Source of the DNA: Pseudomonas sp. FP453
GTDB taxonomy: Bacteria; Pseudomonadota; Gammaproteobacteria; Pseudomonadales; Pseudomonadaceae
DNA: 64,000 bases
Assembly (NCBI RefSeq): GCF_030687495.1
Contig: NZ_CP117435.1
Location: 4,716,501-4,780,500, forward strand
Direction of reading: 5' to 3'
Part shown: positions 1-15,926 of the stretch, piece by piece
Layout: each line of letters starts with the position of its first letter
Numbering within the stretch: position 1 is the stretch's first letter
The notes under the pieces: model-generated
The model's input: the letters and a program-made list of their open reading frames with translations, nothing else
Told to the model about the DNA's origin: nothing
Database searches by the model: none
Made by a program: the position numbers and the translations under genes

Positions 1-1359
1 ATCGGCTCGCACGCCGAACACCTGCATTTTTATGAAGCAGGGGCGCAGCTTCCACCAATCACCGAAGCAGGTTCTCTGGAGCAATGGCAGCAGCAAATCG
101 GCGCGCTGTGCGTTGGTAACCATCGCTTGGCGTTTGTCGTCTCTGTGGCCTTTGCAGGCCCGTTGCTAAACCTGCTCGGACATGAGTCGGGTGGCTTCCA
201 CCTATACGGCGACAGTTCCGGGGGCAAGACCACTCACTTGCAAGTCGCTGCCTCGGTCTATGGCGGGCCGCGTCTGGTGCGTTCGTGGCGTTCTACGGAT
301 AACGCCCTCGAGTCCATCGCTGCCGCACACTCAGACGGCCTCCTGGTGCTGGATGAAATTGGTATGTGTGACCCGCGCATCATTGGCGAAACGGTCTACA
401 TGCTCGGCAACGGCACCGGTAAGGCACGGGCGAATGATCGAGGGCAAGCGGGCCGACAGGTGCAGGAGTGGCGCTTGCTGTTTCTCTCGACGGGCGAAAA
501 GACGCTGGCTCAGCACATGGCGGATGCAAACAAGGAGCTGAAAGCCGGTATGGAGGTACGTATGCTCGCCGTGCCGGCGGATGCCAGCAAAGGCCTCGGC
601 ATGTTCGATGTGCTGAACGGTTTTGAGGACGCTGCCGCCCTCTCCGATGCGCTCAAGGCCCGTGTTGCCAAATACTACGGAACGCCCCTCACCGCCTTCC
701 TGAACGCACTGTGCGCGCCGGGAGAAATGCTGGGATGGTCGGTGATCGTTCGCCGCACGGTAGAACAGTTCATCACACAAAACCTGCCCACCACTGCCAG
801 TGGACAAGCCCAGCGTGCCGCCTTTCGCTTCGGCCTCGCGGCAGCGGCCGGAGAGTTGGCCACCGCCTTCGGCGTCACAGGCTGGCCTGATGGCGCGGCC
901 ACGACCGCCGCACGGGTGTGCCTGCATGCCTGGCTGGCCGAACGTGGTGGTGCCGGTAATTTCGAAGGCGATGCGATCATGGCGCGATTGAGCCAGATCA
1001 TCGAACGTTTTGGAGAAAGCCGCTTTACCCGTTGGGAATCTGCCGCCGCCAAGATCGATGAACATGGCCCACGCACGATTGATCGGTTGGGCTTTCGTAA
1101 GACGATGGAACACGGCATGGGCGACGCCCTGCACACCACTAATACCTACTACGTACTGCCGGAAGCCTGGAGAGCCGAAATTTTCAAGGGCATGAACATC
1201 AGTGCAGTGAACAAGGAGCTGCTGCAACGGGGCGCGCTCGAGCCGGGAAGCAATGGAAAGGCATACAGCCTAATTCGCTTACCTGGATTAGGCCCTCAGC
1301 GCTGCTATGTGGTGAAGACGGTTCCAGGAGCGGACGAAAGCGAGGCCAAGGCCGCCTGA
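1..1359 (+). CDS. DUF927-type P-loop ATPase, C-terminal part
   Basis: The frame is open from base 1, so the gene starts outside the window and 452 residues are visible. A Walker A motif GDSSGGKT lies at visible residues 70-77 and a Walker B-like LVLDE at about 115-119. Between and after them is the pattern of DUF927 proteins, including GETVYMLGNGTGKARA and an FLSTGE stretch. DUF927 proteins are helicase/ATPase-like and occur in phages, satellites and integrative elements, often downstream of or fused to primase/TOPRIM domains. A role in replication or maintenance of this element is inferred. The iteron-rich DNA at 9450-10540 would be a plausible target. A downstream TTG at 127 is not a credible start because similarity continues upstream of it. 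Confidence 0.8.
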   Translation: MGSHAEHLHFYEAGAQLPPITEAGSLEQWQQQIGALCVGNHRLAFVVSVAFAGPLLNLLGHESGGFHLYGDSSGGKTTHLQVAASVYGGPRLVRSWRSTDNALESIAAAHSDGLLVLDEIGMCDPRIIGETVYMLGNGTGKARANDRGQAGRQVQEWRLLFLSTGEKTLAQHMADANKELKAGMEVRMLAVPADASKGLGMFDVLNGFEDAAALSDALKARVAKYYGTPLTAFLNALCAPGEMLGWSVIVRRTVEQFITQNLPTTASGQAQRAAFRFGLAAAAGELATAFGVTGWPDGAATTAARVCLHAWLAERGGAGNFEGDAIMARLSQIIERFGESRFTRWESAAAKIDEHGPRTIDRLGFRKTMEHGMGDALHTTNTYYVLPEAWRAEIFKGMNISAVNKELLQRGALEPGSNGKAYSLIRLPGLGPQRCYVVKTVPGADESEAKAA

Positions 1360-1454: not shown

Positions 1455-2297
1455 ATGAACACTATCCTAGAACTGAAAGACCGCCGCGACACACTGACCC
1501 TCGAAATAGAGAGCATACAGGCTGACCTGGATCCCTTCGAAGCAGCGCTGGAAAGTCCCGAGGTTATCCAGCAAGGCCGTCAACGGGCTGTGCAGGATGA
1601 AATCAACGATCACAAAAGACGCATCGACTCGCGAAGCTTTGAGATCCACCGCCTGAATCAAAAGATCGATCGCCTCGAGGCACTGGCTAACCGTGAGAGC
1701 TTGGCTGCGGGCTACATCAGCGCGATGGCGACTTGGAAGGCCGACGAGATGGAGCTCAACGAAAAGCGCAACAGCATCGAGACCCGGTTGCAACAGGTCC
1801 GCCAGAGCGATCAGGAAGACATGGCAAAGGCGCGACAAGCCGAAACGGACGCCGCTACCGCTTATGCGCAGGCTGTGGCCTGGGGCGATGTGGAGGGCGA
1901 GAAAGCGGCAAACGCTGAAGCTCAAAAAGCAGCAAAAAACCTTACTGCTGCGGTAGAGCATCACCGCCGCCAACAGCTGCTCATCACGGCTCTGGAGCAG
2001 GAGTTGGTGACGATTGACCTGCACATCACGGAGGCACAAAAAGAACGCACCAAGATCGAGAACAAAGCGGCTCACCTGGCGAATACTGTTCTGGAAGAAC
2101 AATGGAATGAGGCCGCCAAAGCACTGTTAGAGACCGGCGGCAAGTTGTGGGCTGCTCGCAAACTGATTAATCGTGATCCGGTTGCGCTGCTGAAACTGGA
2201 AATCCCTGAGCAAGGTGAAAACTTCGGAAGCTGGACCTTCGGAGAACTTGCAGAACGATCACACCAACACAGCCTGCTTGACCTGTTAGCGGCCTAA
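1455..2297 (+). CDS. coiled-coil protein of unknown function
   Basis: This 280-residue protein is dominated by charged heptad-like helices rich in E, K, Q, A and R from about residue 5 to 215 (for example ELKDRRDTLTLEIESIQADL near the start). That suggests a long coiled coil. The last ~60 residues (ALLETGGKLWAARKLINRD onward) look more globular. There is no signal peptide or membrane segment. It lies 95 bp downstream of the DUF927 gene on the same strand and may be co-transcribed. Similar anonymous coiled-coil proteins accompany helicase genes in integrative elements. I do not recognise a named family. The ATG at 1455 is the only good start. Confidence 0.7.
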   Translation: MNTILELKDRRDTLTLEIESIQADLDPFEAALESPEVIQQGRQRAVQDEINDHKRRIDSRSFEIHRLNQKIDRLEALANRESLAAGYISAMATWKADEMELNEKRNSIETRLQQVRQSDQEDMAKARQAETDAATAYAQAVAWGDVEGEKAANAEAQKAAKNLTAAVEHHRRQQLLITALEQELVTIDLHITEAQKERTKIENKAAHLANTVLEEQWNEAAKALLETGGKLWAARKLINRDPVALLKLEIPEQGENFGSWTFGELAERSHQHSLLDLLAA

Positions 2298-3887: not shown

Positions 3888-4172
3888 CTAGTACGGGCTG
3901 TTTTCATACGGGTAGCGCTGCATAAACATTCTTAGCGCTAGTTCAATCCTATCAGAAGACTCGCTCGATGCGAGATGACTAAGCTGATCGGAGGTCAATT
4001 TTCTCATCAGCATACGTAGCTCCATGACAGAGAATTCATGAACAACATCGCCCGTCTTCATTTTGGCAACAACTGACTCTGGTACATGTGTATTGCTATT
4101 AGTATTTGAGAGCACAGCCGTTATCAAATTTTGCTCCAAGAAAAATTCAGTACCAGCATTCACTTCCAACAT
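3888..4172 (-). CDS. small orphan protein paired with nuclease-like gene
   Basis: This 94-residue acidic protein of unknown family has predicted helices in the C-terminal half (MELRMLMRKL, RIELALRMFMQRYPY). Its start is 4 nt after the stop of the PD-(D/E)XK-like gene, so the two form a tight leftward pair with likely translational coupling. Such a pairing would fit an accessory or immunity partner, but nothing in the sequence proves that. It lacks a signal peptide and membrane segments. Confidence 0.6.
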   Translation of the reverse strand: MLEVNAGTEFFLEQNLITAVLSNTNSNTHVPESVVAKMKTGDVVHEFSVMELRMLMRKLTSDQLSHLASSESSDRIELALRMFMQRYPYENSPY

Positions 4173-4176
4173 TTTT

Positions 4177-5151
4177 CTATACTTTCAACTTTTCGACAGG
4201 TGTTTCTCGCCCATCAACTATCTCCCCCGCCTTATAGATCAATTGAAGTTCCGCAATTGCCGACCTACTTTTTCTATCGAGCTTTTTATTGTATAACGAA
4301 CCTGAAGTAAAATGAGTGATAGTCATCGGTGGATAAACAACAACAGATGGTATGTGAATTTGAAATAAACACTCGATAATGTCAGGTCGCCCAGTAAAGA
4401 TCGGCATTGCGGACGCCGCATTCTTAATTTCCGTTAGTTTTCCCCGAATAATATCTCTCGCATGGTCAGGTGTCAGCCCCATGGTAAGGCCATTATGCAT
4501 AAAACCTAACTTTGTTACGTCTGCCGCTATAAATCCGAAGGCATGTTTATCTTCATATTTTTTGGGCATGCGGGAAACTAATTGATCTCTAGCCTTCACA
4601 AGATTATCTTTAAGATTGCGCGCCCCCGCTATTCTTTTACACTCTATAAAAAAGGCATGCTTATCCGTGACGGCAATGATATCAGTATTTGTGCTGATAT
4701 CCACTGCGCATCCAGCTTGACAAAAGTAACTTGCAATCCGCAGTTCAAATTGCGTATCTCTTGATTCAGTGTTCTTGTCGAGGGCCGCAAAATCGCTACC
4801 ACTAATTATTTTTTCTATTTTCTCTTCAATCCCCTTGGGTACATTTTTTTTCAAACCTCGCAATATCCACATTAGCTCATGGGTTTCTCTCAATAAGTAC
4901 AACTGCCAATCAAGAGAGCTTTGGAAACGTACATCATTAACATTTTTGAATATTTTACTTTCATCAATGCTTTTGCCTTCCGCCAACTGGATAAAATACT
5001 GCGTGTAACGAGCAATACGAGTGTTGTGAGTTTTGATTCCGAGATCATCTACAAATTCTTTAAACCGTAGCAAATCAGCAGCATGGTCATGAAAACTTAT
5101 TGCAGGCAAAGTTTCCTCAGGTAATTTATAAAAACGTCCTTCCTCAGTCAT
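4177..5151 (-). CDS. PD-(D/E)XK nuclease-like protein
   Basis: This is a 324-residue protein. Residues 1-125 are helical and unassigned. From about 134 there is a typical restriction-endonuclease core: a helix with E136 (TQFELRIASYF), D157 in a strand (TDIIAV), and the motif FIECKR with E170 and K172, followed by a long helix (DNLVKARDQL). The spacing E-21-D-13-ExK is normal for PD-(D/E)XK phosphodiesterases. It is the first gene of a leftward pair and is divergent from the large Avs-like gene. The target is unknown; DNA cleavage in defence is the most likely role by family. The ATG at 5151 is preceded by GGAGGGTAGA, a good ribosome binding site. Confidence 0.72.
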   Translation of the reverse strand: MTEEGRFYKLPEETLPAISFHDHAADLLRFKEFVDDLGIKTHNTRIARYTQYFIQLAEGKSIDESKIFKNVNDVRFQSSLDWQLYLLRETHELMWILRGLKKNVPKGIEEKIEKIISGSDFAALDKNTESRDTQFELRIASYFCQAGCAVDISTNTDIIAVTDKHAFFIECKRIAGARNLKDNLVKARDQLVSRMPKKYEDKHAFGFIAADVTKLGFMHNGLTMGLTPDHARDIIRGKLTEIKNAASAMPIFTGRPDIIECLFQIHIPSVVVYPPMTITHFTSGSLYNKKLDRKSRSAIAELQLIYKAGEIVDGRETPVEKLKV

Positions 5152-5545
5152 TCTACCCTCCTTGTTTAGCTGATTTTATTCAGTTTTTAATCTACAGGCT
5201 TAGTTTAAATCGAATCGGCGGTACTGAACGGCAGGTGCTGGCCGATATCTATCTGTAGGACTGGCGGAAGCCGGCCAAAAGCTGTCGACCAAGCATGTCC
5301 AAACGCTGTGGCGAAATGAGCACTGTGATTACACAAATTTCCTCACAGAATTTCATGTAAATCTGATCATGCCGTCCCTTAGACCGGCGCCTGGCTGATT
5401 CCAGCATGATCCTTGGCCTCCTGAGGATGTGCACAGGGAATGTAGTATTCAAGCAGGGCGCCCAGTTGCATACTTGACTCAGTTCCTAGCCACTTCGCAA
5501 TTGCGCAGCTTTCCGTTACTCCGCTGCTTTGCCAGAGTTCATCAC
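5152..5545. other. divergent intergenic region
   Basis: These 394 bp between the leftward nuclease-like pair and the rightward Avs-like gene should carry both promoters. I see no confident -35/-10 pair and no convincing small gene. In-frame GTG 5429 would extend the Avs-like protein by 39 residues, but that extension is low in domain-like character. Confidence 0.35.
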
Positions 5546-8500
5546 ATGCCAATCGCACCCATTTCTGTCTTCGGAGATCCCTCTCAAGTTTGGAGCGTTC
5601 CACCAGAGGATTTGATCCGGCAAGCGAATGCCTCACTGCGTGGATATGTCTATCAGCTCCACGCCTCAGCGGCCGCGTGGTTGGCGCTGAGTGTAGACGA
5701 CGAACTCTACCTAGAGGTCGCCGAGGACTTCGCCGAGCTTCTCCGCGAGCCCGGAAGGGTGGCTGACATTCTGAGGGCCACTCAGGTCAAGGATACACGC
5801 GAGTCCGGGGCCGTGACTCTGAACTCACCAGATGTGCTGGCCGCCATTGAGTCTCTTCACAGACTGCGGGCCTGCAATCCTGGACGCGAAGTTAGGTTCG
5901 TATTTCTGACTACATCGCGCATCGGACTGGAGCGGAAGAATGCGCTACCCTCCGGCGTGCCTGGATTGAAAGCTTGGGAAGCGGCTGCTTCCGGCGCGGA
6001 CGTTGAGGAGCTTCGCACAGCGCTCCTTCAGCTTAAGCTCTCTGAGGAGCTTCGAAAATTCATCAAAACTAGCCTTCCTGATCAGCTTAGAGTTGAACTT
6101 CTCAGTCCAATGCTCTTTGCATGCGGAGAACTGGATTGGCGCTCATTGGAGGAGAGTAATCGGCGAGCCATCATGAACCGTCGAGAACACCTTCGATCCA
6201 CCGCAGACATGGCACATCGTGCATACGATGCTGTATTCCGCGATGCCGTTGCGTGTGCGCTCGGACCGGATTCGCGCCGCTTAAACGGAGCACAACTTCA
6301 GGCCTGCCTAGAACGTGCGACCTCCATCGCAGTTCCCTCAGGTGTCGCCATAGACTTACTAGCTGAGCGCTGCGAGCGGCCAAGCAACACTCTGTCCATT
6401 AGCGAATTACGCAACCTGGCGGAGGTGTTAATTCAGACTGGGGCGCCTCCATCAATCGACCTGCTATTTCCTGGTGCCAGGCCTTCAGCTATAGAAGCCC
6501 TTGTAAACGCATTCTCAGTGGAGCCGCGTCTTACCGAAATCAAATTTAATGGAGTTCCCGCGAGCGCATTCATATCGGATCTCATTGGGCTCCCGGAAAA
6601 AAAGCACTTAGTCTTGGGCCAGCCCGGCTCAGGTAAGACTCACGCACTCTGGCAAGCAGCAAATAAGTTGCTCGCGGCCGGAACGATCATCCCGCTTTAT
6701 CTACCAGCAGGACAAGCGACAGGCTGGCACGACCTTGAGGAGATGGTCACGGAAGCGGCTCCGGGAGTCAGATTATCTACTTTGTTCCAAGACCCACGAA
6801 TCTGTGTTTTCGTCGACAGTTGGTCAGAGTTCGCGGGTGTTGCGCGTGTAGGTGAGAAGCGACGTGCGCTCCGCGCACTGCGAAGCGCACGCCTAGTGGC
6901 GACGGCCAAGTTCGCAGACATCGATGACGGTCCCCTTAAACAGTGGACTCTTGATCTGCTCCCGCCCGACCGGGTTGCTCGCGCAGTCGCAGCAGCAAAC
7001 CCGGGCGAAGCGCTTCAACCTAGTCCGGTGACTGACCTACTAAGGCTCCCTCTCCTTTTAGCCATTCATGTTCTTTCGGGCGCGCGCTCTGCGACGACCG
7101 GTGATCTCTTACGTCAATTCCATGAGCACCTTATGAGTGGGCTACCCGAGCGCTTCACAGAAGCACTCGCCGGAGCCGTATCCGATTTATCTCTGGCGGG
7201 AACACGATCTTTTGGTCGCCTCGTCGATGAGCTCCAAACTCGATCAGCTAAAGTGGAAATTGCTGATCCAGCAAGGCTATTAAGGAGTCTCGGCACGATT
7301 CTCGAACGTGGCGGTCAGGCGGTCCCATTTCACGACCTTTACTGGAGCTGGCTCACTGGGCGCGGACTGCTAGCCGACGCTGTCGCCGAGCGCGCTGTGA
7401 GCCCTCTCCGGACGCGAGAAAGCTATGCCCTGGCTATTCAGTCTGGTGGGCGCGCAGCAGAGAGCGACGTAAACGCAACCATGTTGGAAGATTTTGTGCT
7501 GGCCGCCGCACTCGACGTAAGCCGCGGTGCAGACCGCCCCATGCCAGCTCTAACAGCAGCGCTTACCGGCGCTCTGGAAGATCCTCGCTTGGCTGTGCGC
7601 AATCGCGCCGCACTTGCTGCAATGGAGGGAGCGCGCGCAGGACTTTTTCGCCCCGCCCTGGACGTGCTCGCTGAGCTAGGAAGATCCAGCATTTACCCAC
7701 CTGAGTGGACGCTAACCCTCCGCCAAGCAGCTCTTTATGCGCAGCGAGCTACACTCGCAGACTGGTTAGGTTCACCGAATAGCAGTCTCGTCCTCGATGC
7801 TATTGCCGAAAGTGGCGGGCCAGAGTGGGGTCTGTGGTTAGAACACGTTGCGGCTAACGGCCGCATCAGTTGGGCAGAAGCGGCCGCAACCGCGCTTGGC
7901 TGCTGTGGCGACATACCGACATGGGTACGACCGCATCTTGACTCTGTCATCGCCTCATGCGCCTGGCTACTTCGGCCCGCCGCAGCAAGATGTGGAAACA
8001 GAGCCCTCGCTCAATTCATTGCTATCGATTACGAGCTCTTGGTGGAATCAGTCGTAGAGCTGAACTCCAGCGGGTGGATCGAACTCAACCGTGTGCTAGC
8101 CGGCTGCGGCGATGAAGACATGTTCAGTCTTTTACTCTCTCATTTCCCATCCATGAGGCCACGTGCGCAAGAACTTCTCGGCTTTGCTGTCGTCGAGCGT
8201 GGCCCACCATGGGTAGCCCGCTTTCAGCGCGTGGCTTTAGCAACTGGTGCCGCTCATCATCACAAACTTGCAGGGGAGTTCTCGCCTGAAATTGATGATG
8301 AGACGGCGCGAGCCTGGATTACCGCAGGTCATGACGAGACTGGCTGGCGGGTCCTAATCGCGCGTCATGGCGAGGCAATACTGCCTGAGTTGATTCAACA
8401 ATTGCCTCCTTCCTTCGCAGATATCCACCACATCCCAGCACTCGCCCATATGCGTTGGCTTCCGGGCGCTCCGGTTACGCTCATCAACGAGGTCTGGCGC

Positions 8501-9319
8501 CGCCTGGGAAGCCCAATGCAACCGAAGGCGATGCGGGATGTACTCAACGCTATTGCGCGAGTATATCCAGCTGGAATTCCCCATATTGTAAGTTTTATCG
8601 CAGAACAACCCAACGCGCTTCCGGCGTATCACCTACACCAAGCCCTTTTGCTGTACTTGGATTGGCAAAAGAAATCTGGTGCGATACTCGTCGTAAAGAC
8701 GTCCGATGGTAACGAACATCCTTTTCCCAATTGGATCGCACTTCATTGTGCGATGAGCCAATGGGAAGACTATTTCACGCCGGAGTTGTTAGCCCTTACG
8801 CCCGAAATAGCTATCGAATATGTCGTGCGTCATCTCGATGACAAACGCGCTGAAGCGGTACTGGAGCGGTTAAAGGGAGTAACCACCTACAGCGCTCCGC
8901 TGCTGGATCGCATGCTTGCAGTGCCAACCCTTGCTGCTCTAATTCCTCAGGTATTCGCCGAAAGTTTCGAACAATTTCCCATCGATGCTCTCCGGAGGTG
9001 CATTGCATCGATCGATATCGACCAAGAAAGTTTGCTGTACCGACTCGCCGCAACAGCGAATCCCATGCATCGTGGAGTGCATGAGGAGCTTATCGAGCGC
9101 GTCCTCGCGTGCTCGCCCAAATGGCATGAGTTGCATTACGTGGCGGACATGCTGAGAGCTTATTCGAAGGAGGAGGTACTCCAAATTATTGATGCAGTAT
9201 CTGAATGCAGTGAGGACTGCTGGTTATGGTTTGTTCGCTTGGTAGAGGCGACGAGGGGGGAGCGCTTGATCAACGAGGACGGTGCCATAAGGTGTCAGGA
9301 GCCTAAAAACTTACTGTAG
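5546..9319 (+). CDS. Avs-like protein: nuclease + STAND NTPase + alpha-solenoid
   Basis: This is a 1257-residue protein. Residues ~30-130 match the pattern of Cap4/DUF4297-type dsDNA endonucleases: G33-YVYQ, acidic strand EVAEDF (E57, D61), TQVKD with Q80/K82 as the (D/E/Q)xK signature, then FVFLTT. A P-loop NTPase follows with Walker A GQPGSGKT (358-365) and Walker B-like VFVDSW (D424). From ~560 to the end come A- and L-rich helical repeats of HEAT/TPR style. This effector-NTPase-sensor order is that of Avs antiviral STAND proteins, which bind a phage protein, oligomerise and activate the effector. I cannot assign it to a numbered Avs family. I chose ATG 5546 (AGAG 9-12 nt upstream); GTG 5429 is an alternative. 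No partner gene is required in Avs systems. Confidence 0.75.
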   Translation: MPIAPISVFGDPSQVWSVPPEDLIRQANASLRGYVYQLHASAAAWLALSVDDELYLEVAEDFAELLREPGRVADILRATQVKDTRESGAVTLNSPDVLAAIESLHRLRACNPGREVRFVFLTTSRIGLERKNALPSGVPGLKAWEAAASGADVEELRTALLQLKLSEELRKFIKTSLPDQLRVELLSPMLFACGELDWRSLEESNRRAIMNRREHLRSTADMAHRAYDAVFRDAVACALGPDSRRLNGAQLQACLERATSIAVPSGVAIDLLAERCERPSNTLSISELRNLAEVLIQTGAPPSIDLLFPGARPSAIEALVNAFSVEPRLTEIKFNGVPASAFISDLIGLPEKKHLVLGQPGSGKTHALWQAANKLLAAGTIIPLYLPAGQATGWHDLEEMVTEAAPGVRLSTLFQDPRICVFVDSWSEFAGVARVGEKRRALRALRSARLVATAKFADIDDGPLKQWTLDLLPPDRVARAVAAANPGEALQPSPVTDLLRLPLLLAIHVLSGARSATTGDLLRQFHEHLMSGLPERFTEALAGAVSDLSLAGTRSFGRLVDELQTRSAKVEIADPARLLRSLGTILERGGQAVPFHDLYWSWLTGRGLLADAVAERAVSPLRTRESYALAIQSGGRAAESDVNATMLEDFVLAAALDVSRGADRPMPALTAALTGALEDPRLAVRNRAALAAMEGARAGLFRPALDVLAELGRSSIYPPEWTLTLRQAALYAQRATLADWLGSPNSSLVLDAIAESGGPEWGLWLEHVAANGRISWAEAAATALGCCGDIPTWVRPHLDSVIASCAWLLRPAAARCGNRALAQFIAIDYELLVESVVELNSSGWIELNRVLAGCGDEDMFSLLLSHFPSMRPRAQELLGFAVVERGPPWVARFQRVALATGAAHHHKLAGEFSPEIDDETARAWITAGHDETGWRVLIARHGEAILPELIQQLPPSFADIHHIPALAHMRWLPGAPVTLINEVWRRLGSPMQPKAMRDVLNAIARVYPAGIPHIVSFIAEQPNALPAYHLHQALLLYLDWQKKSGAILVVKTSDGNEHPFPNWIALHCAMSQWEDYFTPELLALTPEIAIEYVVRHLDDKRAEAVLERLKGVTTYSAPLLDRMLAVPTLAALIPQVFAESFEQFPIDALRRCIASIDIDQESLLYRLAATANPMHRGVHEELIERVLACSPKWHELHYVADMLRAYSKEEVLQIIDAVSECSEDCWLWFVRLVEATRGERLINEDGAIRCQEPKNLL

Positions 9320-9451
9320 TGAACCCTGCCTGAGTAGGCCACGACGTGCCAGTGACCGGCCTAGATAGAGGGCCTTGATGAAGAAAGACTTCGGTTCGAC
9401 GATGGTCTACCTTAGTCAGCATAAACCGCTGCTCACAAAGCACCCATTTAT

Positions 9452-9574
9452 GTAACACCTACTGGCCCTGTAACACGCCCATACGGCAATGAAACACACC
9501 GTGTGTAACGACACATATATCCTTTAAATTCAAATAGTTACGATAAATAGTAACACGTGTAACACCCGTAACAT
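9452..9574 (+). repeat. left iteron cluster GTAACAC with AT-rich DNA
   Basis: GTAACAC occurs at 9452, 9470, 9550 and 9559, with GTAACAT at 9568 and a GTGTAACG variant near 9503. The last three are spaced exactly 9 bp (9550, 9559, 9568). The stretch 9514-9549 before them is strongly AT-rich. Direct iterons next to an AT-rich segment are the usual layout of a plasmid or phage replication origin. Confidence 0.65.
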
Positions 9575-9659
9575 GGTTTTATAAAGAGGTATGCCCCCTA
9601 GCCCCGAAATGGCGCTTCCTCCAGCGAGAAAGCATGATCGCTTCGAATTCAAAACGTAA

Positions 9660-9767
9660 AGGGACCCTGGAAGACTACTCATTCACGGGGTCGGAAACCC
9701 GCGTGATCGTGTCAGCGAAAAGGTACCCAGCTTAGTGAACAGGTGAACCGGGTGAACTGCTGTTCAC
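9660..9767 (+). repeat. module A with GTGAAC iterons
   Basis: The module opens with GGGACCCTGG (9661), continues with GGAAACCCGCGTGATC (9693-9708), and ends in GTGAAC at 9735, 9743 and 9752 plus an inverted GTTCAC at 9762. The iteron sequence resembles the phage P4 type I iteron (GGTGAACA), which is bound by the P4 alpha helicase-primase. It is one of three related modules at this locus. Confidence 0.6.
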
Positions 9768-9791
9768 CAGTGCATTTGCCCTATGAATCGG

Positions 9792-9900
9792 AAAGTCGCT
9801 GGGGACCCTGGGCATTTAGGCTAGACAAGGGGCAAAGAACCCGCCGGATCTCGTTAGTGACTGGGCTCCAAAGTTAGTTGACTGGTTGACCAAATTGACC
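9792..9900 (+). repeat. module B with GTTGAC iterons
   Basis: This copy shares AAAGTCGC(T)GGGGACCCTG (9792 onward), the GAACCCGCCGGATC block (9838-9850) and GTTAGTGA with the other modules. It ends in GTTGAC at 9877 and 9885 and ATTGAC at 9894. The spacing of 8 then 9 bp is the same as in module A, although the repeated word differs. Confidence 0.6.
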
Positions 9901-9983
9901 GGGCCAATCGTTCACTATCCTGAACGAAACCCATGACCCTTACATATCCGGTAAGGATGGCCTTTTTTCTTCAAGATCCTTTC

Positions 9984-10092
9984 AATTTCAACGATTGAAA
10001 TTTCAGTAACTTCCAATGCCTCCCACTAACTAGATCCCGCGGGTTTCATGCCCCGTGTCGCTAGGATGTCGTCAGGGTCCCCGGCGACTTTT
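9984..10092 (-). repeat. module C, inverted copy with TTGAAA palindrome
   Basis: Read leftward from 10092, it shows AAAAGTCGCCGGGGACCCTG, which matches module B at 18 of 20 positions, then GAAACCCGCGGGATCTAG and GTTAGTGG. Where A and B have iterons, C has a perfect palindrome, AATTTCAA-CGA-TTGAAATT (9984-10002). It is the third member of the family in the opposite orientation. Confidence 0.6.
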
Positions 10093-10149
10093 CAATGCAC
10101 CATTTGAAACGTCGCACTACGGACCACGTGTAACATGGACTCAGCGCAT

Positions 10150-10320
10150 CACGCCTGCCCAATCCCTGAGGGCAGCACATCAAACATGCCCAGACGCTTA
10201 GCGACAAAGCGTCGTACAGGCCGATAGCAACATCGGTGCCTAATCGGATCCGGCCAACACAGCCAGGTATTCAATGCTGCATCACGAGGGAAGTCACTCT
10301 CGCTGCAGGAACCTCTGTAA
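10150..10320. other. hairpin-rich non-coding stretch
   Basis: Consecutive stems are visible: CTGCCC/GGGCAG (10155-10175), GACGCTT/AAGCGTC (10193-10213) and CCGAT/ATCGG (10221-10236). No open frame is convincing. It could be a structured RNA or part of the origin. I recognise no known RNA family. Confidence 0.35.
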
Positions 10321-10350
10321 GAGGGGCAAGGGGACGGGACTTACAAGTCG

Positions 10351-10539
10351 TGTTACTGATGTTACGCGCGCTACAAAAAACATAACCAATTGAATATAAA
10401 GGTTTTTTATTCGTTACACGTTCTCTGCCCTGATTTAGAAGTGGGTGTTACAGGACGTCAGGTGTTACACCCGAATATGCCTATCCAGATACAGGCTTAT
10501 TTTGCCTTTTTCGGGCTTTCTGCTTGATAAGTAACACCC
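10351..10539 (-). repeat. right iteron cluster, GTGTTAC orientation
   Basis: TGTTAC occurs at 10351 and 10360 (9 bp apart), GTTACAC at 10413, GGTGTTACAG at 10444 and GGTGTTACACCC at 10461. GTAACACCC at 10531 is in the opposite orientation, just before the recombinase gene. An AT-rich stretch (10375-10412) lies inside the cluster. It mirrors the left cluster at 9452-9574. Confidence 0.6.
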
Positions 10540-10588
10540 ATAGTGCAACAGTATTAGTAGAACGCCTTAACTGATACAGGCACCCATC

Positions 10589-11212
10589 ATGTTCATCCGC
10601 GCATACCTCCGAGCCTCCACCGAAGAACAAGACGCCGGCCGTGCCCGGGCCTCGCTCGAGCAATTCGCCAGCGACCATAACAAGGTCATTGCAAGCGTGT
10701 ACTTGGAGAACGCCAGCGGAGCCACCGCCGACCGGCCGGAGCTGCTGCGCCTGCTCAAGGATGCCCGTAAGGGTGACGTGTTGCTGGTGGAGTCGATAGA
10801 CCGCCTCTCCCGCCTCCCAGTGGAGGACTGGCAAAAGCTGAAGACTGCCATCGACTCAAAGGGGCTGCGCATCGTCGCGCTCGACCTGCCGACCAGCCAC
10901 CAGGGAATGCAGGACACCAAGGGCGACGAGTTCACAGGCCGGATGCTGGGGGCGATTAACTCCATGCTGGTGGAAATGATGGCCGCCATCGCGCGCAAGG
11001 ATTATGAGCAGCGCCGCGACCGGCAGGCCCAGGGCATCGAAAAGGCCAAAGCCGAGGGCAAGTACCTGGGGCGCCCGGTGGATGCTGATCTGCACAGACG
11101 TGTGGCCGAGTTATTGGGAGCAGGCCTCGGCATAAGAGCTACTGCAAGGCACGCTAACTGCTCAACAACAACCGTTCTGCGCATTAAGGGTAGTTCGAAA
11201 GTCGAGCTTTAG
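10589..11212 (+). CDS. small serine recombinase (resolvase/invertase family)
   Basis: This is a 207-residue protein of resolvase size. The catalytic N-terminus reads YLRASTEEQ (R8, nucleophile S10), followed by the conserved ESIDRLSR (arginines of the active site), a long E-helix (GAINSMLVEMMAAIARKDYEQ), and a C-terminal helix-turn-helix (AELLGAGLGIRATARHANCS...TTVLRIKG). Serine recombinases cut at 2-bp staggered crossover sites; those of this size usually resolve or invert. It probably acts on sites in the repeat-rich DNA directly upstream, where GTAACACCC at 10531 lies 58 bp before the start. It is not a typical tRNA-targeting integrase, so integration at the tRNA must involve another enzyme outside the window. 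Confidence 0.9.
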   Translation: MFIRAYLRASTEEQDAGRARASLEQFASDHNKVIASVYLENASGATADRPELLRLLKDARKGDVLLVESIDRLSRLPVEDWQKLKTAIDSKGLRIVALDLPTSHQGMQDTKGDEFTGRMLGAINSMLVEMMAAIARKDYEQRRDRQAQGIEKAKAEGKYLGRPVDADLHRRVAELLGAGLGIRATARHANCSTTTVLRIKGSSKVEL

Positions 11213-11289
11213 GGCTCGCAGAGGCAGGCTTTTAAAACAACTCCAAGTCGTGGGCGTGATTACACATAAAACGGCAATGGGTGCGAGAG

Positions 11290-11622
11290 CTATTCCTGAT
11301 GTTCTGAGGGTGACGCGCTGTCCGCGGGCCTAGTTCTCATCTGCCATATTTCTTGGAACGCCGAGCACACGTATCGAACTGCTAGACCGATAGCGACGAT
11401 ACCAGCAACTGTGACGTGCTCCCGCCACGACGATGGAAGGTTTGCGGCGCTCCCAACAAAACCAGCGGCGATAATTGCGACTCCACCTGGCACGCTAAAA
11501 GCTGATAGAAAAACTAGAACCGTATGATTGAGGTCAAAGGGTTGTTTGTTTATCGCTCTGAAACCTGCATAAAAGACGGACAATGACACACCAAGCGCTA
11601 TCCCGATCGTAGTGGTATCCAT
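11290..11622 (-). CDS. small membrane protein
   Basis: This 110-residue protein has three predicted membrane segments: residues ~5-20 (IGIALGVSLSVFYAGF), ~34-58 (VLVFLSAF...IIAAGFVG) and ~70-90 (VTVAGIVAIGLAVRYV). It has a short charged tail. Its ATG overlaps the stop of the upstream bactofilin-like gene by 1 nt (TGATG), so the two are translationally coupled. The family is not recognised. Confidence 0.6.
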   Translation of the reverse strand: MDTTTIGIALGVSLSVFYAGFRAINKQPFDLNHTVLVFLSAFSVPGGVAIIAAGFVGSAANLPSSWREHVTVAGIVAIGLAVRYVCSAFQEIWQMRTRPADSASPSEHQE

Positions 11623-12062
11623 CAGCCACGCTCTTTAGATTCGTTGCCTATAATTGCGCCTATCACCCCTCCGACTACAGCCCCAAAAGGACCACCTATA
11701 GCAGCCCCCAATGTCGCGCCGCCGATCAGGCCGATAGCTTGTGAGTTACCTCGAGAGGATTGCGTAGCGCCTCTTACAGACGCCGAGGGCGATATTACCG
11801 AGTTGCCACTCTCCGTTATTACCTGTCCATGCACTGTGCCATAAACCTCCAGGACCCCCCCCTGATTCACGACGTCGCCTTTCACCATCCCGTGGACTTT
11901 GGCTGCACCGCCAGGTTGAACGACAACATTTTTTATGCACGTCCCGTACAGGAGCAAAAGTCCTCCCGATTTTACGATGATGCTCCCACACGCCATCCCG
12001 TAAAGTGAAAGCGCCCTATTGAGCTCGATGTCGCCGTCAATTCGACCGTGTTCGGATTGCAT
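11622..12062 (-). CDS. bactofilin-like beta-repeat protein with glycine-zipper tail
   Basis: This 146-residue protein is built from short strand-turn repeats with regular glycines (LLLYGTCIKNVVVQPGG, VHGMVKGDVVNQGG, VYGTVHGQVITESG). This is the pattern of right-handed beta-helix bactofilins (polymer-forming cytoskeletal proteins). The C-terminus (GLIGGATLGAAIGGPFGAVV) is a glycine zipper, probably membrane-associated. It is the first gene of a two-gene leftward operon with the membrane protein. A role in scaffolding or envelope association is inferred. It lies between the island recombinase and the tRNA. Confidence 0.6.
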   Translation of the reverse strand: MQSEHGRIDGDIELNRALSLYGMACGSIIVKSGGLLLLYGTCIKNVVVQPGGAAKVHGMVKGDVVNQGGVLEVYGTVHGQVITESGNSVISPSASVRGATQSSRGNSQAIGLIGGATLGAAIGGPFGAVVGGVIGAIIGNESKERG

Positions 12063-12340
12063 AAAATTCTCTCGTTAACAGCAGTACGCATCTTTAAGAG
12101 ACTCGACGGTCCGTCTGCGTGAAGCGTAATCGTAGTCAAAATATGCAAAACGATTTGGGAAGGACCAGAGATAGATACAGCAGAATAGCCTTAAACCACG
12201 GCTCTGGAGAGGAGCCACGCCGAATGTATCGACGCTAAAAAGCGATTCGGGAACCCCAGGCACTGTATACGCTAGCTGCCACGCTGCTGTCACAGAGCGG
12301 AAATGCATTATAGAGTTAAGCCTGGAAGCCTTGAATTATA

Positions 12341-12417
12341 TGGTGTCCCAGGGCCGGTTCGAACGGCCAACCTTCCCCTTAGGAGGGGGATGCTCTATCC
12401 AATTGAGCTACTGGGAC
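12341..12417 (-). tRNA. tRNA-Arg (anticodon CCT)
   Basis: A full cloverleaf can be folded on the minus strand: acceptor GTCCCAG/CTGGGAC, D-arm GTAGCTCAATTGGATAGAGC, anticodon loop CTCCTAA between TCCCC and GGGGA, T-loop GTTCGAA, encoded CCA. The 3' end faces left, toward the accessory region, so the tRNA is the likely attachment site of the island at 1-12340. Confidence 0.95.
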
Positions 12418-12742
12418 AAATGACAGCCACTGCGCCAGGGGCAGTGCGACGGACGGCGTGCATGTTAACGGCCAAGGTGGGTTTTGTCATGTCGTCCGTA
12501 GGCTTTTTGAGTGTAGGCCGCCGCCTGCCTGGGTGACTACGGCCTGCCCCTGCAAATCCGGGCACTTGGCGCCATCGTGCAAAATGCACTCCGCCAAAAT
12601 GCCATCATTGCAAATTGCAAGGAAACAGCCCCTTAAACAACACCTAAGCCACTGATTTTATTGAAATAAAACATTGGCACGGGTTCTGCAATACTTCTCC
12701 TACAACAGTCAATTGGCCACACCAGCCACGGAGAACATGATC
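12418..12742. other. intergenic region with two TGCA-type palindromes
   Basis: These 325 bp separate the tRNA from the small membrane protein gene. GTGCA-AAA-TGCAC (12577-12589) and TTGCAA-A-TTGCAA (12608-12620) are two similar palindromes about 31 bp apart and could be operators of the downstream gene. No gene is seen. Confidence 0.35.
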
Positions 12743-12970
12743 ATGAACAGCGCGCTTCTGTTAGCTCTCAACGCCGTGGCCCTGGCCGCATTGGTGATGT
12801 TCCACTTCCAATCGAGCAACAACGAAGACACCGCGCAGCTTCGCCAACCGGTGCCACACCACTTGCAACAGCGCCCGCAACTGGCGGTGATGACCGCCAA
12901 GCCACAATCCGACATCCACCTGACACAGGGCACTCAAGCAGCGCCCTCCTCCGAACACTGGGTTTTCTGA
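12743..12970 (+). CDS. small single-pass membrane protein
   Basis: This is a 75-residue protein. Its N-terminus, MNSALLLALNAVALAALVMF, is a single hydrophobic helix, and a polar Q/P-rich tail follows. GGAG at 12730-12733 is 9 nt from ATG 12743; the in-frame ATG at 12737 is the alternative start, two codons longer. It is followed 10 bp later by a second small membrane protein gene on the same strand. Function is unknown; the arrangement suggests a conserved Pseudomonas envelope protein. Confidence 0.55.
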   Translation: MNSALLLALNAVALAALVMFHFQSSNNEDTAQLRQPVPHHLQQRPQLAVMTAKPQSDIHLTQGTQAAPSSEHWVF

Positions 12971-12980
12971 GGGCACCCCC

Positions 12981-13160
12981 ATGAGCAAGCCTGCCTGGCT
13001 GTTCCTTTGCATGACCTTGGCCACTGCCATTCTGGGACTTAACGTCAACACCCAGGATGAGCAAACCACATCCTTTATTGCCAGCGGTGTGTTTGCGAGC
13101 CTGCTCTTGCTGACCCTCATCGTCGGCCGGCGGATCAAATTCGACCCTGTATTGCGCTGA
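12981..13160 (+). CDS. small two-helix membrane protein (PA3371-like)
   Basis: This 59-residue protein begins MSKPAWLFLCMTLATAILGL (first helix) and has a second helix, FASLLLLTLIVG. It ends in RRIKFDPVLR, a tail I associate with the PA3371 family of small Pseudomonas proteins. It starts 10 bp after the stop of the preceding gene, so the two are probably co-transcribed. Function is unknown. Confidence 0.65.
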   Translation: MSKPAWLFLCMTLATAILGLNVNTQDEQTTSFIASGVFASLLLLTLIVGRRIKFDPVLR

Positions 13161-13552
13161 ACCGCCCCCTCCCCATCGCCTACCTTATGTCGCCTCGCGC
13201 TAGTAAATCGGCAGATTGCCACTAGTCTTAAAATCAAGGGCAAAAGGCCACATTGCTATACGATGTGCGCCCTCCAGCCCTTTTGTGGCCGGGGTGTGGG
13301 CGAAAATTGCTGGATGAAGTTTTTCGTCGAAAAGTTTTCCAACCAGTCCGCAAAAAAGCAAATCAGTGCTGGCATTAAGCCTTTAGGCAGTTCAATATTT
13401 GTCACAGAATTGACGCCAAGGAACTGGCAAATCTGAGGCATGATGCGGCCTCTTTGCAATTCAGGTTGAACTTTGGTCGTGAGCCTTGTCTTAACTCTCA
13501 TCGCTTGCGGCCAATTCCAAAAACCGCTCCCCTGAACTAACCGGTTAAATAT
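13161..13552. other. amrZ upstream region
   Basis: This 392-bp non-coding stretch is typical of the long regulated upstream region of amrZ, which is known to be AlgU-dependent and autoregulated in P. aeruginosa. Apart from the AlgU-like promoter listed separately I see no gene. Confidence 0.4.
13468..13494 (+). promoter_or_regulatory. candidate AlgU (sigma-22) promoter of amrZ
   Basis: GAACTT at 13468-13473 and TCTTAA at 13489-13494 resemble the AlgU consensus GAACTT-N16/17-TCTGA, with a 15-nt spacer that is one short. It sits about 60 bp upstream of the amrZ ATG. The short spacer lowers confidence. Confidence 0.4.
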
Positions 13553-13879
13553 ATGCGCCCATTGAAACAGGCAATTTATTCCAGCCGTACGGCTGACAAG
13601 TTCGTCGTACGTCTGCCAGACGGAATGCGGGAACGCATTGCCGAGGTGGCTCGCAATCATCACCGCAGCATGAACTCCGAAATCATCGCGCGCCTGGAGC
13701 AAAGCCTTATTCAGGAAGGTGCGTTGGGCGAAGAGTTGAGCATGCGCCTGGACAGCCCCGAGCTGTCGCTGCACGAACGCGAACTGCTGCAGCGTTTTCG
13801 TCAGCTCTCCCACCGCCAGCAAAATGCTCTCGTCTCGCTCATCGCGCACGACGTCGAGGCGGCCGCAGAAGCCAATTGA
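13553..13879 (+). CDS. amrZ: AmrZ, ribbon-helix-helix regulator of alginate and motility
   Basis: This 108-residue protein is almost collinear with P. aeruginosa AmrZ (AlgZ). It has an N-terminal tail [16 protein letters not shown], the Arc-type beta-strand [18 protein letters not shown], the RHH helices [15 protein letters not shown], and a C-terminal tetramerisation region ([20 protein letters not shown]). AmrZ binds DNA as a higher-order oligomer; it activates alginate genes and represses fleQ in P. aeruginosa and controls c-di-GMP genes in P. fluorescens. The gene is monocistronic, with its own terminator 18 bp downstream. No obvious Shine-Dalgarno precedes the ATG. Confidence 0.93.
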
Positions 13880-13896
13880 TAGACAACTGAAAGCCG

Positions 13897-13923
13897 AAGC
13901 CAGCTATGTGCTGGCTTTTTTTT
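13897..13923 (+). terminator. amrZ Rho-independent terminator
   Basis: AGCCAG/CTGGCT stem with a 7-nt loop at 13898-13916, followed by seven T residues. Confidence 0.9.
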
Positions 13924-13951
13924 GCTTGAAATTTGAGCAGGGAAGCGCAGC

Positions 13952-13973
13952 AAAGGGGGCAGAGTTGCCCCCC
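13952..13973 (-). terminator. mgtE Rho-independent terminator
   Basis: Read leftward: GGGGGCA-loop-TGCCCCC (13955-13972) and then TTTG. It is located 14 bp after the mgtE stop codon. Confidence 0.65.
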
Positions 13974-13985
13974 CTAAGGACAGGA

Positions 13986-15428
13986 TCAGAGCAGGAAGAT
14001 CGTCGCCAGACCCAGGAAGATGAAGAAGCCGCCACTGTCGGTCATGGCGGTAATCATCACGCTGGCACCCATGGCAGGATCGCGCCCAAGGCGCGCCAGG
14101 GTCATCGGGATCAACACCCCCATCAGCGCCGCCAGCAGCAGGTTGAGCGTCATGGCGGCCGTCATCACGACGCCAAGCGACCAACTGCCGTAAAGCAAGT
14201 AAGCCACCACACCGATCACCCCACCCCACACCAGGCCGTTGATCAAGCCCACCGCCAGCTCCTTGCGCAGCAGTCGCGATGAATTGGCGGTACTCACCTG
14301 GTCCAGTGCCATGGCGCGCACGATCATCGTGATCGTCTGGTTGCCCGAGTTGCCGCCGATCCCGGCCACAATCGGCATCAGTGCCGCGAGCGCCACCAGC
14401 TTCTCGATCGAGCCTTCGAACAAGCCAATCACCCGCGATGCGATAAAAGCAGTGATCAGGTTGACGGCCAACCAGGCCCAACGGTTTTGCAGCGAGCGCC
14501 AGACCGAGGCAAAAATATCTTCCTCTTCACGCAGACCCGCCATGTTGAGGACTTCAGTCTCACTTTCCTCACGAATCAAGTCGACCATTTCATCGATGGT
14601 CAAACGGCCAATCAGCTTGCCGTTCTTGTCGACCACCGGGGCCGAGATCAAGTCATAACGCTCGAACGCCTGCGCCGCTTCGTAGGCATCTTCGTCCGGG
14701 TGAAAACTTACCGTGTCACTGGCCATCAGATCCGCGACTTTCTTGTCCGGGTCATTGACCAGCAAACGCTTGATCGGCAGCACGCCCTTGAGGATGCCTT
14801 CGTAATCCACCACGAACAGTTTGTCGGTGTGGCCTGGCAGCTCCTTGAGGCGACGCAGGTAACGCAATACCACTTCCAGGCTGACGTCTTCGCGGATGGT
14901 GACCATCTCGAAGTCCATCAGGGCGCCGACCTGGTCCTCGTCATAGGACAGCGCGGAGCGTACTCGCTCACGCTGCTGGCCATCGAGGGCTTCCATCAGC
15001 TCATGTACGACGTCACGCGGCAGCTCAGGGGCCAAGTCAGCGAGTTCGTCGGCATCCATCTCCTTGGCAGCAGCCAGGAGCTCGTGATCGTCCATGTCGG
15101 CGATCAGGGTTTCACGCACCGAGTCGGATACTTCGAGAAGGATGTCGCCGTCGCGGTCAGCCTTGACCAACTGCCAGAGGGTCAGTCGATCATCGAGGGG
15201 CAAGGCTTCGAGAATGTAGGCGACGTCGGCGGAGTGCAGGTCATCGAGCTTGCGTTGCAGCTCGACGAGATTTTGTCGGTGAACCAGGTTTTCGACGCGG
15301 TCGTGGTTCGGACCTTCCTGGCGATGCGTAAGGTCTTCGACCACGCGCTGGCGCTGCAGCAGCTCGATGACTTGAGCCAGGCGATCCTGCAGGCTTTCTT
15401 GTGTTTTCTTTACTTCTACTTCGGTCAT
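13986..15428 (-). CDS. mgtE: MgtE magnesium transporter
   Basis: This is a 480-residue inner-membrane Mg2+ channel/transporter. In order: an N-terminal superhelical MgtE_N domain (residues ~35-135), two CBS domains (~140-260; HTDKLFVVDYEGILKGVLPI, DLISAPVVDKNGKLIGRLTI), and five membrane helices with the signature PIVAGIGGNSGNQ and a DPAMGASVMITAMTDSGGF pore segment. Mg2+ bound between the N and CBS domains gates the channel in characterised homologues. Start 15428 is preceded by GGAGTGGAG at a good distance; the extra upstream codons do not resemble the family. Transcribed alone, leftward. Confidence 0.95.
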   Translation of the reverse strand: MTEVEVKKTQESLQDRLAQVIELLQRQRVVEDLTHRQEGPNHDRVENLVHRQNLVELQRKLDDLHSADVAYILEALPLDDRLTLWQLVKADRDGDILLEVSDSVRETLIADMDDHELLAAAKEMDADELADLAPELPRDVVHELMEALDGQQRERVRSALSYDEDQVGALMDFEMVTIREDVSLEVVLRYLRRLKELPGHTDKLFVVDYEGILKGVLPIKRLLVNDPDKKVADLMASDTVSFHPDEDAYEAAQAFERYDLISAPVVDKNGKLIGRLTIDEMVDLIREESETEVLNMAGLREEEDIFASVWRSLQNRWAWLAVNLITAFIASRVIGLFEGSIEKLVALAALMPIVAGIGGNSGNQTITMIVRAMALDQVSTANSSRLLRKELAVGLINGLVWGGVIGVVAYLLYGSWSLGVVMTAAMTLNLLLAALMGVLIPMTLARLGRDPAMGASVMITAMTDSGGFFIFLGLATIFLL

Positions 15429-15743
15429 AGGCGAACTCCACTCCCAGCAGCGGGGCACGCCGGAAGGATCAATCAGTCAATTCATGATTGGTAAAACGGG
15501 GTACTGAGTCACTACTGGGTAAGTCCATGGAGGTATTCCACAAGCCCCGGCGGGGCTGACGGGCGCAATCATACACCGCCCGACCGCTTTAAACGTCAAA
15601 AAACTGGAAAGAACAAGCGCTTGCGAGCAAAAGCTGAGCAACGGCTGGATCTATGAACTGCGACGACGCAGCCCGAAAGGAAAACACATGACGCAGGAGA
15701 AAAGATAAGACCTGGGATAAATCCTACTCAAACCCCAGACGGC
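15429..15743. other. mgtE upstream region
   Basis: 315 bp with no gene. It should contain the mgtE promoter and 5' leader; I see no known Mg2+ riboswitch motif. Confidence 0.3.
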
Positions 15744-15770
15744 AAAAAGCCCGCACTAGGCGGGCTTTTT
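15744..15770 (-). terminator. bidirectional terminator after the tRNA cluster
   Basis: AAAAAGCCCGC-ACTAG-GCGGGCTTTTT: a 7-bp GC stem flanked by A5 and T5, usable in both directions. It ends the leftward rsmA-tRNA transcript. Confidence 0.9.
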
Positions 15771-15777
15771 GTTTGTA

Positions 15778-15854
15778 TGGTGCACTCGACAGGATTCGAA
15801 CCTGTGACCGCTCGGTTCGTAGCCGAGTACTCTATCCAGCTGAGCTACGAGTGC
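15778..15854 (-). tRNA. tRNA-Arg (anticodon ACG), copy 1
   Basis: Acceptor GCACTCG/CGAGTGC, anticodon loop CTACGAA between CTCGG and CCGAG, T-loop GTTCGAA, encoded CCA. The sequence is identical to the second copy 72 bp away. Confidence 0.96.
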
Positions 15855-15926
15855 AGATTGTGTTTTTAGACCAGATCACAACTGGTTGGAGCCAAGCCAC
15901 CTGCATTGCTGCAACTGACTCTTAAA

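What the first reader, a model, noticed from the sequence alone, without database searches (positions are those of the whole stretch)
9452..10539. Undescribed origin-like locus with related modules and several iteron words
Seen: GTAACAC motifs at both ends in opposite orientation (9550/9559/9568 and 10351/10360 at 9-bp period), AT-rich stretches beside them, and three diverged copies of one module (A 9660, B 9792, C inverted at 10092) with the shared blocks GGGACCCTG, GAACCCGC..GATC and GTTAG. A ends in GTGAAC x3, B in GTTGAC x2 plus ATTGAC, both at 8/9-bp spacing; C has a TTGAAA palindrome instead. Known: P4 alpha protein binds GGTGAACA iterons. Inference: a multi-specific replication or control region for the DUF927 helicase or the serine recombinase.
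Basis: partly seen in the sequence, partly recalled or inferred. Interest (0 to 1): 0.85.

Follow-up and report, generated by a model that had tools for sequence, protein, structure and literature searches.

The report
Satellite carrying three phage packaging sites
This stretch of a Pseudomonas mobile island carries what look like three complete phage-style DNA packaging sites, each with a different address word that matches a different class of phage packaging enzyme, so the island may be able to ride in the particles of several kinds of helper phage.

Summary
The repeats are real and conserved, but they are not a replication origin. Modules A, B and C each have the plan of a lambda-like cos site: cosQ (GGGGNCCCTG), cosN (ACGGGG-N6-AACCCGC) and cosB (three or more short words). 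The same module occurs singly in Pseudomonas prophages directly upstream of TerS (29 of 35 single modules). There the cosB word follows the N-terminal class of TerS: GTGAAC, GTTGAC or TTGAAA/ATTGAA in 174 of 174 viral loci with a word call and in 28 of 29 prophages from whole genomes. These are the words of A, B and C. No terminase of this type was found in the window's element, a 17.1-kb satellite-like island (integrase, AlpA-like protein, DUF927 primase-helicase, cargo). Of 53 arrays read, none repeats a word (31 ABC, 10 AC, 8 BC, 3 AB, 1 ABCD) and in all 53 the cosB sides face inward. Best reading: a multi-helper packaging adapter. The GTAACAC clusters are a separate feature, perhaps the satellite's own replication sites; the serine recombinase is an unlinked neighbour. 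A satellite with two cos sites is in print; an array of distinct, terminase-matched specificities was not found in the papers searched. All evidence is computational.

The parts
9655..9774 (+). Module A = cos-like site of word class A: cosQ GGGACCCTG 9661-9669, cosN ACGGGGTCGGAAACCCGCGTGATC 9685-9708, cosB words GTGAAC at 9735, 9743, 9752 and inverted at 9762
   Evidence: same words upstream of class-A TerS in phages
9791..9910 (+). Module B = cos-like site of word class B: cosQ 9801-9810, cosN AAGGGGCAAAGAACCCGCCGGATC 9827-9850, cosB words GTTGAC 9877 and 9885, ATTGAC 9894
   Evidence: same words upstream of class-B TerS
9960..10094 (-). Module C = inverted cos-like site of word class C: cosQ CAGGGTCCCC 10073-10082, cosN 10033-10056, cosB words TTTCAATTTCAACGATTGAAATTTCAG 9980-10006
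   Evidence: same words upstream of class-C TerS
9940..9965 (.). Conserved TTAC...GGTAA dyad followed by a T-run, beside the inverted cos slot; role unknown (terminator-like)
9445..9579 (+). GTAACAC cluster (CLU+): direct repeats at 9-bp period beside an AT-rich stretch; candidate replication or control site of the satellite
10346..10480 (-). Second GTAACAC cluster (CLU-), inverted; in 7 of the other 10 element regions an inverted cluster lies at the left (integrase) end instead
1..1359 (+). C-terminal part of the satellite's DUF927 primase-helicase (962 aa; begins left of the window at L036:14471; an N-terminal Toprim-like part is my reading of the sequence)
1455..2297 (+). 280-aa backbone protein (coiled-coil-like by reading), found beside DUF927 in 9 of 11 element regions; function unknown
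12341..12387 (-). attR: 47-bp end of tRNA-Arg(CCT), repeated directly at the left end of the element (L036:11304-11350)
10589..11212 (+). Serine recombinase (resolvase-type): neighbour, not part of the cos array

Best explanation
The locus is the packaging region of a phage satellite. Each of modules A, B and C is a full lambda-like cos site (cosQ-cosN-cosB). Shown by sequence: the module plan is that of single sites upstream of TerS-TerL in Pseudomonas prophages, and the cosB word follows the N-terminal (presumed DNA-binding) class of TerS. Inferred: when a helper phage is active the satellite excises, replicates with its own DUF927 primase-helicase into concatemers, and whichever helper terminase is present binds only the module that carries its word, cuts its cosN and packages the satellite into helper particles. 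Three words in one array would make one satellite packageable by three classes of helper. The GTAACAC clusters are a different feature, more likely used by the satellite's own replication or control proteins.
For: Single modules in L054-L058 lie upstream of TerS and TerL; for L054 and L057 these are phrog_57 and phrog_15 with GpA_ATPase and GpA_nuclease domains, and L054 has a lambda-family portal. Word equals N-terminal TerS class in 174 of 174 viral loci with a word call (of 177; 31 non-redundant TerS at 90%, all concordant), also in the 34 loci whose C-terminal half is nearer another class. Second set, chosen by DNA: 29 of 35 single modules have TerS within 330 bp, 28 of 29 concordant; 26 of 35 have a TerL hit. 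No TerS/TerL hit beside any of 27 arrays or in 11 element regions. None of 53 arrays repeats a word; label shuffles give a mean of 31.5 arrays with a repeat, minimum 19 in 10,000 shuffles. cosN lines up with the lambda cos junction of NC_001416. A fourth word, GTTAAC, found in 7 P. aeruginosa phages read, occurs in one four-module array, L030.
Against: No packaging, cutting or binding was tested. The window's genome has no hit to TerL of this family (0 of 1), so no helper is seen there. Arrays are related by descent, so the no-repeat count is not a set of independent trials; 26 of the 53 arrays came from loci picked by similarity to the window. The 177 viral loci were found with TerS queries, so the TerS side is partly fixed by the query; only 159 are distinct in site plus TerS. 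One prophage (L302) has B words while its TerS N-terminus is slightly nearer A (45% against 40%), and two of the 28 concordant ones (L304, L311) show only two exact words. Six of 35 single modules have no TerS downstream. The P. aeruginosa phages with the fourth word have a different cosN sequence. Window module A has a shorter cosQ (GGGACCCTG preceded by A, not G). Why one side of the array is always inverted is unexplained.
Confidence: 0.85

Rival explanations
1. Decoy: the array titrates helper terminases or draws them into unproductive cutting, so it protects the host or the satellite from helper phages rather than getting the satellite packaged.
For: The element carries an accessory cargo region (one PADLOC candidate-defence hit, PDC-S46, among three proteins tested of the second copy; none among the window's six tested), and words match three terminase classes.
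Against: Modules keep cosQ and cosN as well as cosB; a binding decoy would need only the words. The element has integrase, AlpA-like protein and a primase-helicase and no terminase of this type, the make-up of a satellite that must be packaged. Decoy and packaging do not exclude each other.
Confidence: 0.08
2. Replication origin: the modules are origin sites of the DUF927 helicase, as ori and crr of P4 are for the alpha protein.
For: Iteron-like words with 8/9-bp spacing, AT-rich neighbourhood, linkage to DUF927 in 9 of 11 element regions, GTGAAC core shared with the recalled P4 iteron.
Against: The same modules occur singly upstream of terminase genes in prophages, with no DUF927 hit in the ~20 kb read of L054-L058, and the word follows TerS.
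Confidence: 0.03
3. Relic: the modules are leftovers of ancient prophages and have no present use.
For: One of the three classes is missing in 21 of 53 arrays and some modules are degenerate (L327, L341, L026).
Against: 53 arrays keep two or more modules with distinct words and inward orientation; no TerS/TerL hit beside the 27 checked.
Confidence: 0.04

Closest known systems
EcCICFT073, an E. coli PICI with two cos sites (Fillol-Salom 2018, PMC6092414; passages read)
   Same: Satellite without TerS that carries more than one cos site; both sites were shown there to be functional, and the island was transferred by phages lambda and phi80 besides its own inducing phage, so packaging by several helpers is a known fact.
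   Different: There both cosN are reported as identical to those of the inducing phage and no phage cosB was recognised; here each module has its own cosB word, and three or four words match different TerS classes.
Lambda cos (cosQ-cosN-cosB) with TerS gpNu1
   Same: Same order of parts upstream of the terS gene; cosN similar over ~20 bp (ACGGGG...CGCGGG); GpA-type TerL.
   Different: cosB words are 6-bp repeats at 8-9 bp spacing with no clear likeness to lambda in the alignment; the site is multiplied and mixed in the satellite.
P4 satellite and the P4-like family
   Same: tRNA-targeting tyrosine integrase, AlpA-like regulator, primase-helicase, cargo, no structural genes seen (general P4 features partly recalled; cos-adjacent hotspot in P4-like elements from PMC9122126, passages read).
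   Different: P4 is reported to share a core cos signal with P2 (passage); here there are 2-4 cos-like sites of distinct specificity, GpA/lambda-type candidate helpers, and a DUF927 domain (the P4 domains are recalled, not compared).
Pseudomonas satellite phiAH14b with helper phiAH14a (PMC4936722, abstract and passages read)
   Same: 16.8-kb Pseudomonas satellite; annotated order integrase - 318 aa - AlpA resembles the standard elements here.
   Different: Reported as headful-packaged without cohesive ends, primase and helicase split, and no module or GTAACAC cluster found in KU708005.
Pseudomonas island I55 carried by a jumbo phage (PMC12595487, passages read)
   Same: Pseudomonas island that behaves as a phage satellite.
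   Different: Helper is a jumbo phage; the term 'cos site' does not occur in that main text (term search); sequences not compared.

Membership tests
Lambda-type cos site (each module) | cosQ, cosN and cosB in that order | tested here: met
   window module A has a shortened cosQ
Lambda-type cos site (each module) | Lies just upstream of terS-terL in a phage | tested here: met
   For the module family: 29 of 35 single modules with TerS within 330 bp, 26 of 35 with a TerL hit, 5 of 5 prophage loci L054-L058; not for the satellite copies, as expected of a satellite
Lambda-type cos site (each module) | cosB is bound by the cognate TerS N-terminal domain | not testable with these tools
   Only covariation: 174 of 174 viral loci with a call, 28 of 29 genome prophages
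Lambda-type cos site (each module) | Terminase cuts cosN with staggered nicks, giving cohesive ends | tested here: inconclusive
   The linear record of phage Haddon ends 103 bp upstream of terS, near the expected place, but record ends may be assembly artefacts
Phage satellite | Integrates at a tRNA gene with direct att repeats | tested here: met
   47-bp repeat for the window's element. Weaker for others: 63-bp repeat in G198, where no tRNA was found; 11-15-bp tRNA-end repeats 0.5-1.5 kb right of C in 8 of 9 elements tested, none for own2; an 11-base match alone can be chance
Phage satellite | Own replication gene but no terminase or structural genes | tested here: met
   DUF927 protein, phrog DNA primase; no TerS/TerL hit in 11 element regions; other structural genes were not searched for
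Phage satellite | Mobilised in helper particles | not testable with these tools
   No hit to this TerL family in the own genome
P4 ori/crr type origin (modules) | Sites belong to the element's own helicase, not to the helper's packaging genes | tested here: not met
   Modules stand alone upstream of TerS-TerL in prophages
P4 ori/crr type origin (GTAACAC clusters) | Two iteron regions in cis, both bound by the replication protein | tested here: inconclusive
   Two clusters in inverted orientation found in 7 of 11 element regions, one only in 4 (G062, G198, G268, G297); binding not testable

The most novel reading that the evidence does not exclude
Satellites keep a combinatorial packaging adapter: cos cassettes taken from different helper classes are collected in one array, selected never to repeat a specificity and exchanged between slots (ABC, AC, BC, AB, and a four-word ABCD array in L030), so that the range of usable helpers is written as a readable list of words in DNA.
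Probability: 0.6. Interest if true: 0.85.

Novelty: new variant of a known kind. Interest (0 to 1): 0.76.

Why it matters
Satellites are often studied with one helper or a narrow group (general view, recalled; EcCICFT073 is a known exception). An array of packaging sites with separate terminase addresses would be a simple DNA-only route to many helpers, and helper use could be predicted from sequence. The word-TerS covariation also gives a natural data set for the recognition code of GpA-type terminases: four words (GTGAAC, GTTGAC, TTGAAA/ATTGAA, GTTAAC) against four TerS N-termini.

Tried and rejected
Considered and dropped: (1) replication origin for the modules (see rivals). (2) Attachment site or arm sites of an integrase: the window's element uses another integrase and another tRNA than the other element regions yet keeps the array. 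(3) res site of the serine recombinase: recombinase and modules are not linked in other loci. (4) Structured RNA: no Rfam match other than tRNAs in window 1-16500 at the gathering threshold; covariation of RNA pairs was not tested. (5) Membership in phiAH14b: no module or cluster there. (6) blastn of the region against named phages and plasmids gave nothing. (7) PDB sequence search with one class-A TerS gave nothing. (8) Other genera: DNA query 7 of 148 family genomes, all of the own genus; model R1 3 of 244 order genomes, one outside the family with weak hits (G653, E 3.6e-5 to 7.3e-4). (9) NCBIfam scan failed, so there is no NCBIfam result. No structure was predicted. Pfam gave no family for six of the nine window proteins tested.

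Full report
WHAT IS THERE. A, B and the inverted C align along their whole length: GGGGACCCTG, ~20 bp, ACGGGG-N6-AACCCGCG-GATC, GTTAG, then short repeated words. A has GTGAAC, B GTTGAC, C TTGAAA/ATTGAA. To the left is a ~135-bp cluster of GTAACAC words beside AT-rich DNA; an inverted homologue lies to the right at 10346-10480.

THE ELEMENT. The window is G000:C1:4716501-4780500 of a 6.28-Mb genome. The element runs from a 47-bp repeat left of the window (L036:11304) to the tRNA-Arg(CCT) end at 12341-12387, 17,084 bp. It holds a tyrosine integrase, a small HTH_17 protein (phrog_66, excisionase and regulator; called AlpA-like here), a 962-aa protein with a DUF927 domain that PHROGs calls DNA primase (its Toprim-like part is my reading), a 280-aa protein, cargo genes, the array, and a serine recombinase. 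None of the six window proteins tested against PADLOC gave a hit; one protein of the second copy matches PDC-S46. Eleven element regions were put together from adjacent stretches: DUF927 and the 280-aa protein are in 9 of 11. In the standard order, read in full for G296 and at the left end for own2, G205 and G198, a tRNA gene or repeat is followed by an integrase-like gene, an inverted GTAACAC cluster, a ~300-aa gene (103 aa in own2), an AlpA-like gene (by reading), DUF927, cargo, the second cluster, the array, a gene, and the right repeat. tRNA-end repeats of 11-15 bp lie 0.5-1.5 kb right of C in 8 of 9 elements tested; the 11-base ones alone could be chance. The window's element differs: another integrase at another tRNA, and both clusters beside the array. 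The 27 stretches with the exact C core in named genome contigs are all Pseudomonas (records near the window may be left out, and the window's own C core has one base more and would not match).

WHAT THE MODULES ARE. Five loci with a match to C and its right side only (L054-L058) proved to be prophages in which the module stands directly upstream of TerS and TerL genes (families checked for L054 and L057). The words are C-type in L054, L055 and L058, B-type in L056 and A-type in L057. The parts match lambda: cosQ, cosN (ACGGGG...CGCGGG, record NC_001416), cosB, then terS. The roles of cosQ, cosN and cosB are as stated in PMC6092414 (passages read); the 12-base stagger is recalled. Eight P. aeruginosa phage records have TerL 66-70% identical to that of L054. 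In the seven read (all but Presto) three or more GTTAAC words precede terS, a fourth class; six show a cosQ-like GGGGGCCCCTG upstream (in Haddon the stretch read ends before it), but their cosN sequence is different.

COVARIATION. Three TerS queries gave 177 loci from IMG/VR (80, 80 and 17; the first two are the best 80 of 242 and of 126); 159 are distinct in upstream sequence plus TerS. The word was read in the 125 bp upstream of TerS. Of 174 loci with a word call (83 C, 75 A, 16 B) the nearest N-terminus (residues 1-62) agreed in 174, although in 34 the C-terminal half was nearer another class; 3 loci (L113, L135, L255) had no call. After clustering TerS at 90% there are 31 (14 C, 12 A, 5 B), all concordant. 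Because the loci were found by TerS class, the TerS side is partly fixed by the query; the word side is not. Five loci found with the A query (L243-L247) carry C-type N-termini and C words. The second set was chosen by DNA alone: 119 genus genomes searched with a model of the module (R1, sequence only) gave 102 matches in 44 genomes, which form 28 arrays (in 22 genomes) and 35 single modules. Of the 35, 29 have a TerS frame within 330 bp; the word agrees with the nearest N-terminus in 28, two of them (L304, L311) with only two exact words. The exception, L302, has B words and an N-terminus 45% like A and 40% like B, with the helix WSRQYVGKL that the B-word loci L305 and L306 also have. The six without TerS are L289 (near a contig end, with a second weak module), L299, L300, L310, L313 (TerS fragment) and L315.

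THE ARRAYS. 27 of the 28 arrays were read (G101:C30 was not fetched); none has a TerS or TerL hit in the stretch read. With 26 further loci there are 53 different arrays (six duplicates removed): 31 ABC, 10 AC, 8 BC, 3 AB, 1 ABCD. The 27 alone are 11 ABC, 8 AC, 5 BC, 3 AB. Modules of L327, L341 and L026 that the script left uncalled were assigned by eye, a partial repeat in L029 was left out, and the GTTAAC module of L030 (match E 1.5e-6, weak cosQ) was assigned by eye. No array repeats a word; in 10,000 label shuffles the mean number of arrays with a repeat was 31.5 and the minimum 19. Arrays share ancestry, so this is not a probability. In all 53 the cosB sides point inward, one side having a single module.

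HOW IT MOST LIKELY WORKS. Inferred: each helper's TerS binds only its own word, so each helper uses one module and ignores the rest. Distinct words would avoid double cutting within one unit. In lambda the end cut needs cosQ and cosN (cosQ from PMC6092414, the rest recalled), so opposite orientation may keep the lone module from being read by a passing packaging complex; this is a guess. A ~17-kb unit would have to be packaged as multimers or in small heads; PMC6092414 discusses skipping of cos sites for EcCICFT073, and phiAH14b was proposed to travel as trimers (PMC4936722).

THE GTAACAC CLUSTERS. They go with the satellite, not with the candidate helpers: no cluster was found in the ~20 kb read of prophage loci L054-L058. 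Both copies were found in 7 of 11 element regions, one only in 4 (the search model was built from the window's two copies, so diverged ones can be missed). Their first word is GTAACACC in loci whose 280-aa protein is at least 83% like the window's (L034, L038, L039, L040, L044, L048, L051; L037 has GTGACACC) and GTTACACC in those at 66% or less (L043, L046, L050, L052, L053); L041, L042, L045, L047 and L049 could not be compared. This fits a site read by a protein of the satellite itself, but linkage alone would also give it. A role like the ori/crr pair of P4 (recalled) is my preferred guess (about 0.5).

WHAT IS KNOWN. Two cos sites in one satellite, and transfer by several helpers, are in print (EcCICFT073; SaPIbov4 is named there as having two putative sites; PMC6092414, passages). 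Searches in an open-licence library listed no paper whose title or shown abstract describes cos arrays of distinct specificity; passages of five listed papers were read. Subscription papers and preprints were not covered.

Noticed in passing
L030:1472-2025 (G132:C1): Four-module array with four words A, B, C and GTTAAC; the fourth word is that of named P. aeruginosa phages (Haddon, Turba, Lodos and others).
   Followed up: partly
window 9445-9579 and 10346-10480; left ends of related elements: Two inverted GTAACAC clusters in 7 of 11 element regions; word variant GTAACAC/GTTACAC goes with the subtype of the satellite backbone.
   Followed up: partly
window 10476-10590 upstream of the serine recombinase: The leader of this recombinase matches at about 77-97% in other genomes (query 1037-1151); in the seven such loci fetched it lies before the recombinase without the array, so the gene seems to move as its own unit.
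   Followed up: partly
L324, L325 (G653, another family of the order): Weak module matches with GTTGAC words; L324 has a faint TerS hit (28%), so the cos type may reach beyond the genus.
   Followed up: no
L080 (phage Haddon, PQ571161) 1-30: The linear record ends in a 30-base fold-back repeat inside the cos region, possibly a sequencing or assembly artefact at a cohesive end.
   Followed up: no
window 5429-9319: 1296-aa protein with a Walker A-like motif (GQPGSGKT) and no Pfam or PADLOC match; possible new defence gene.
   Followed up: no
L347 (phiAH14b): Annotated order integrase - 318 aa - AlpA resembles the standard elements here, although no cos module was found in it.
   Followed up: partly
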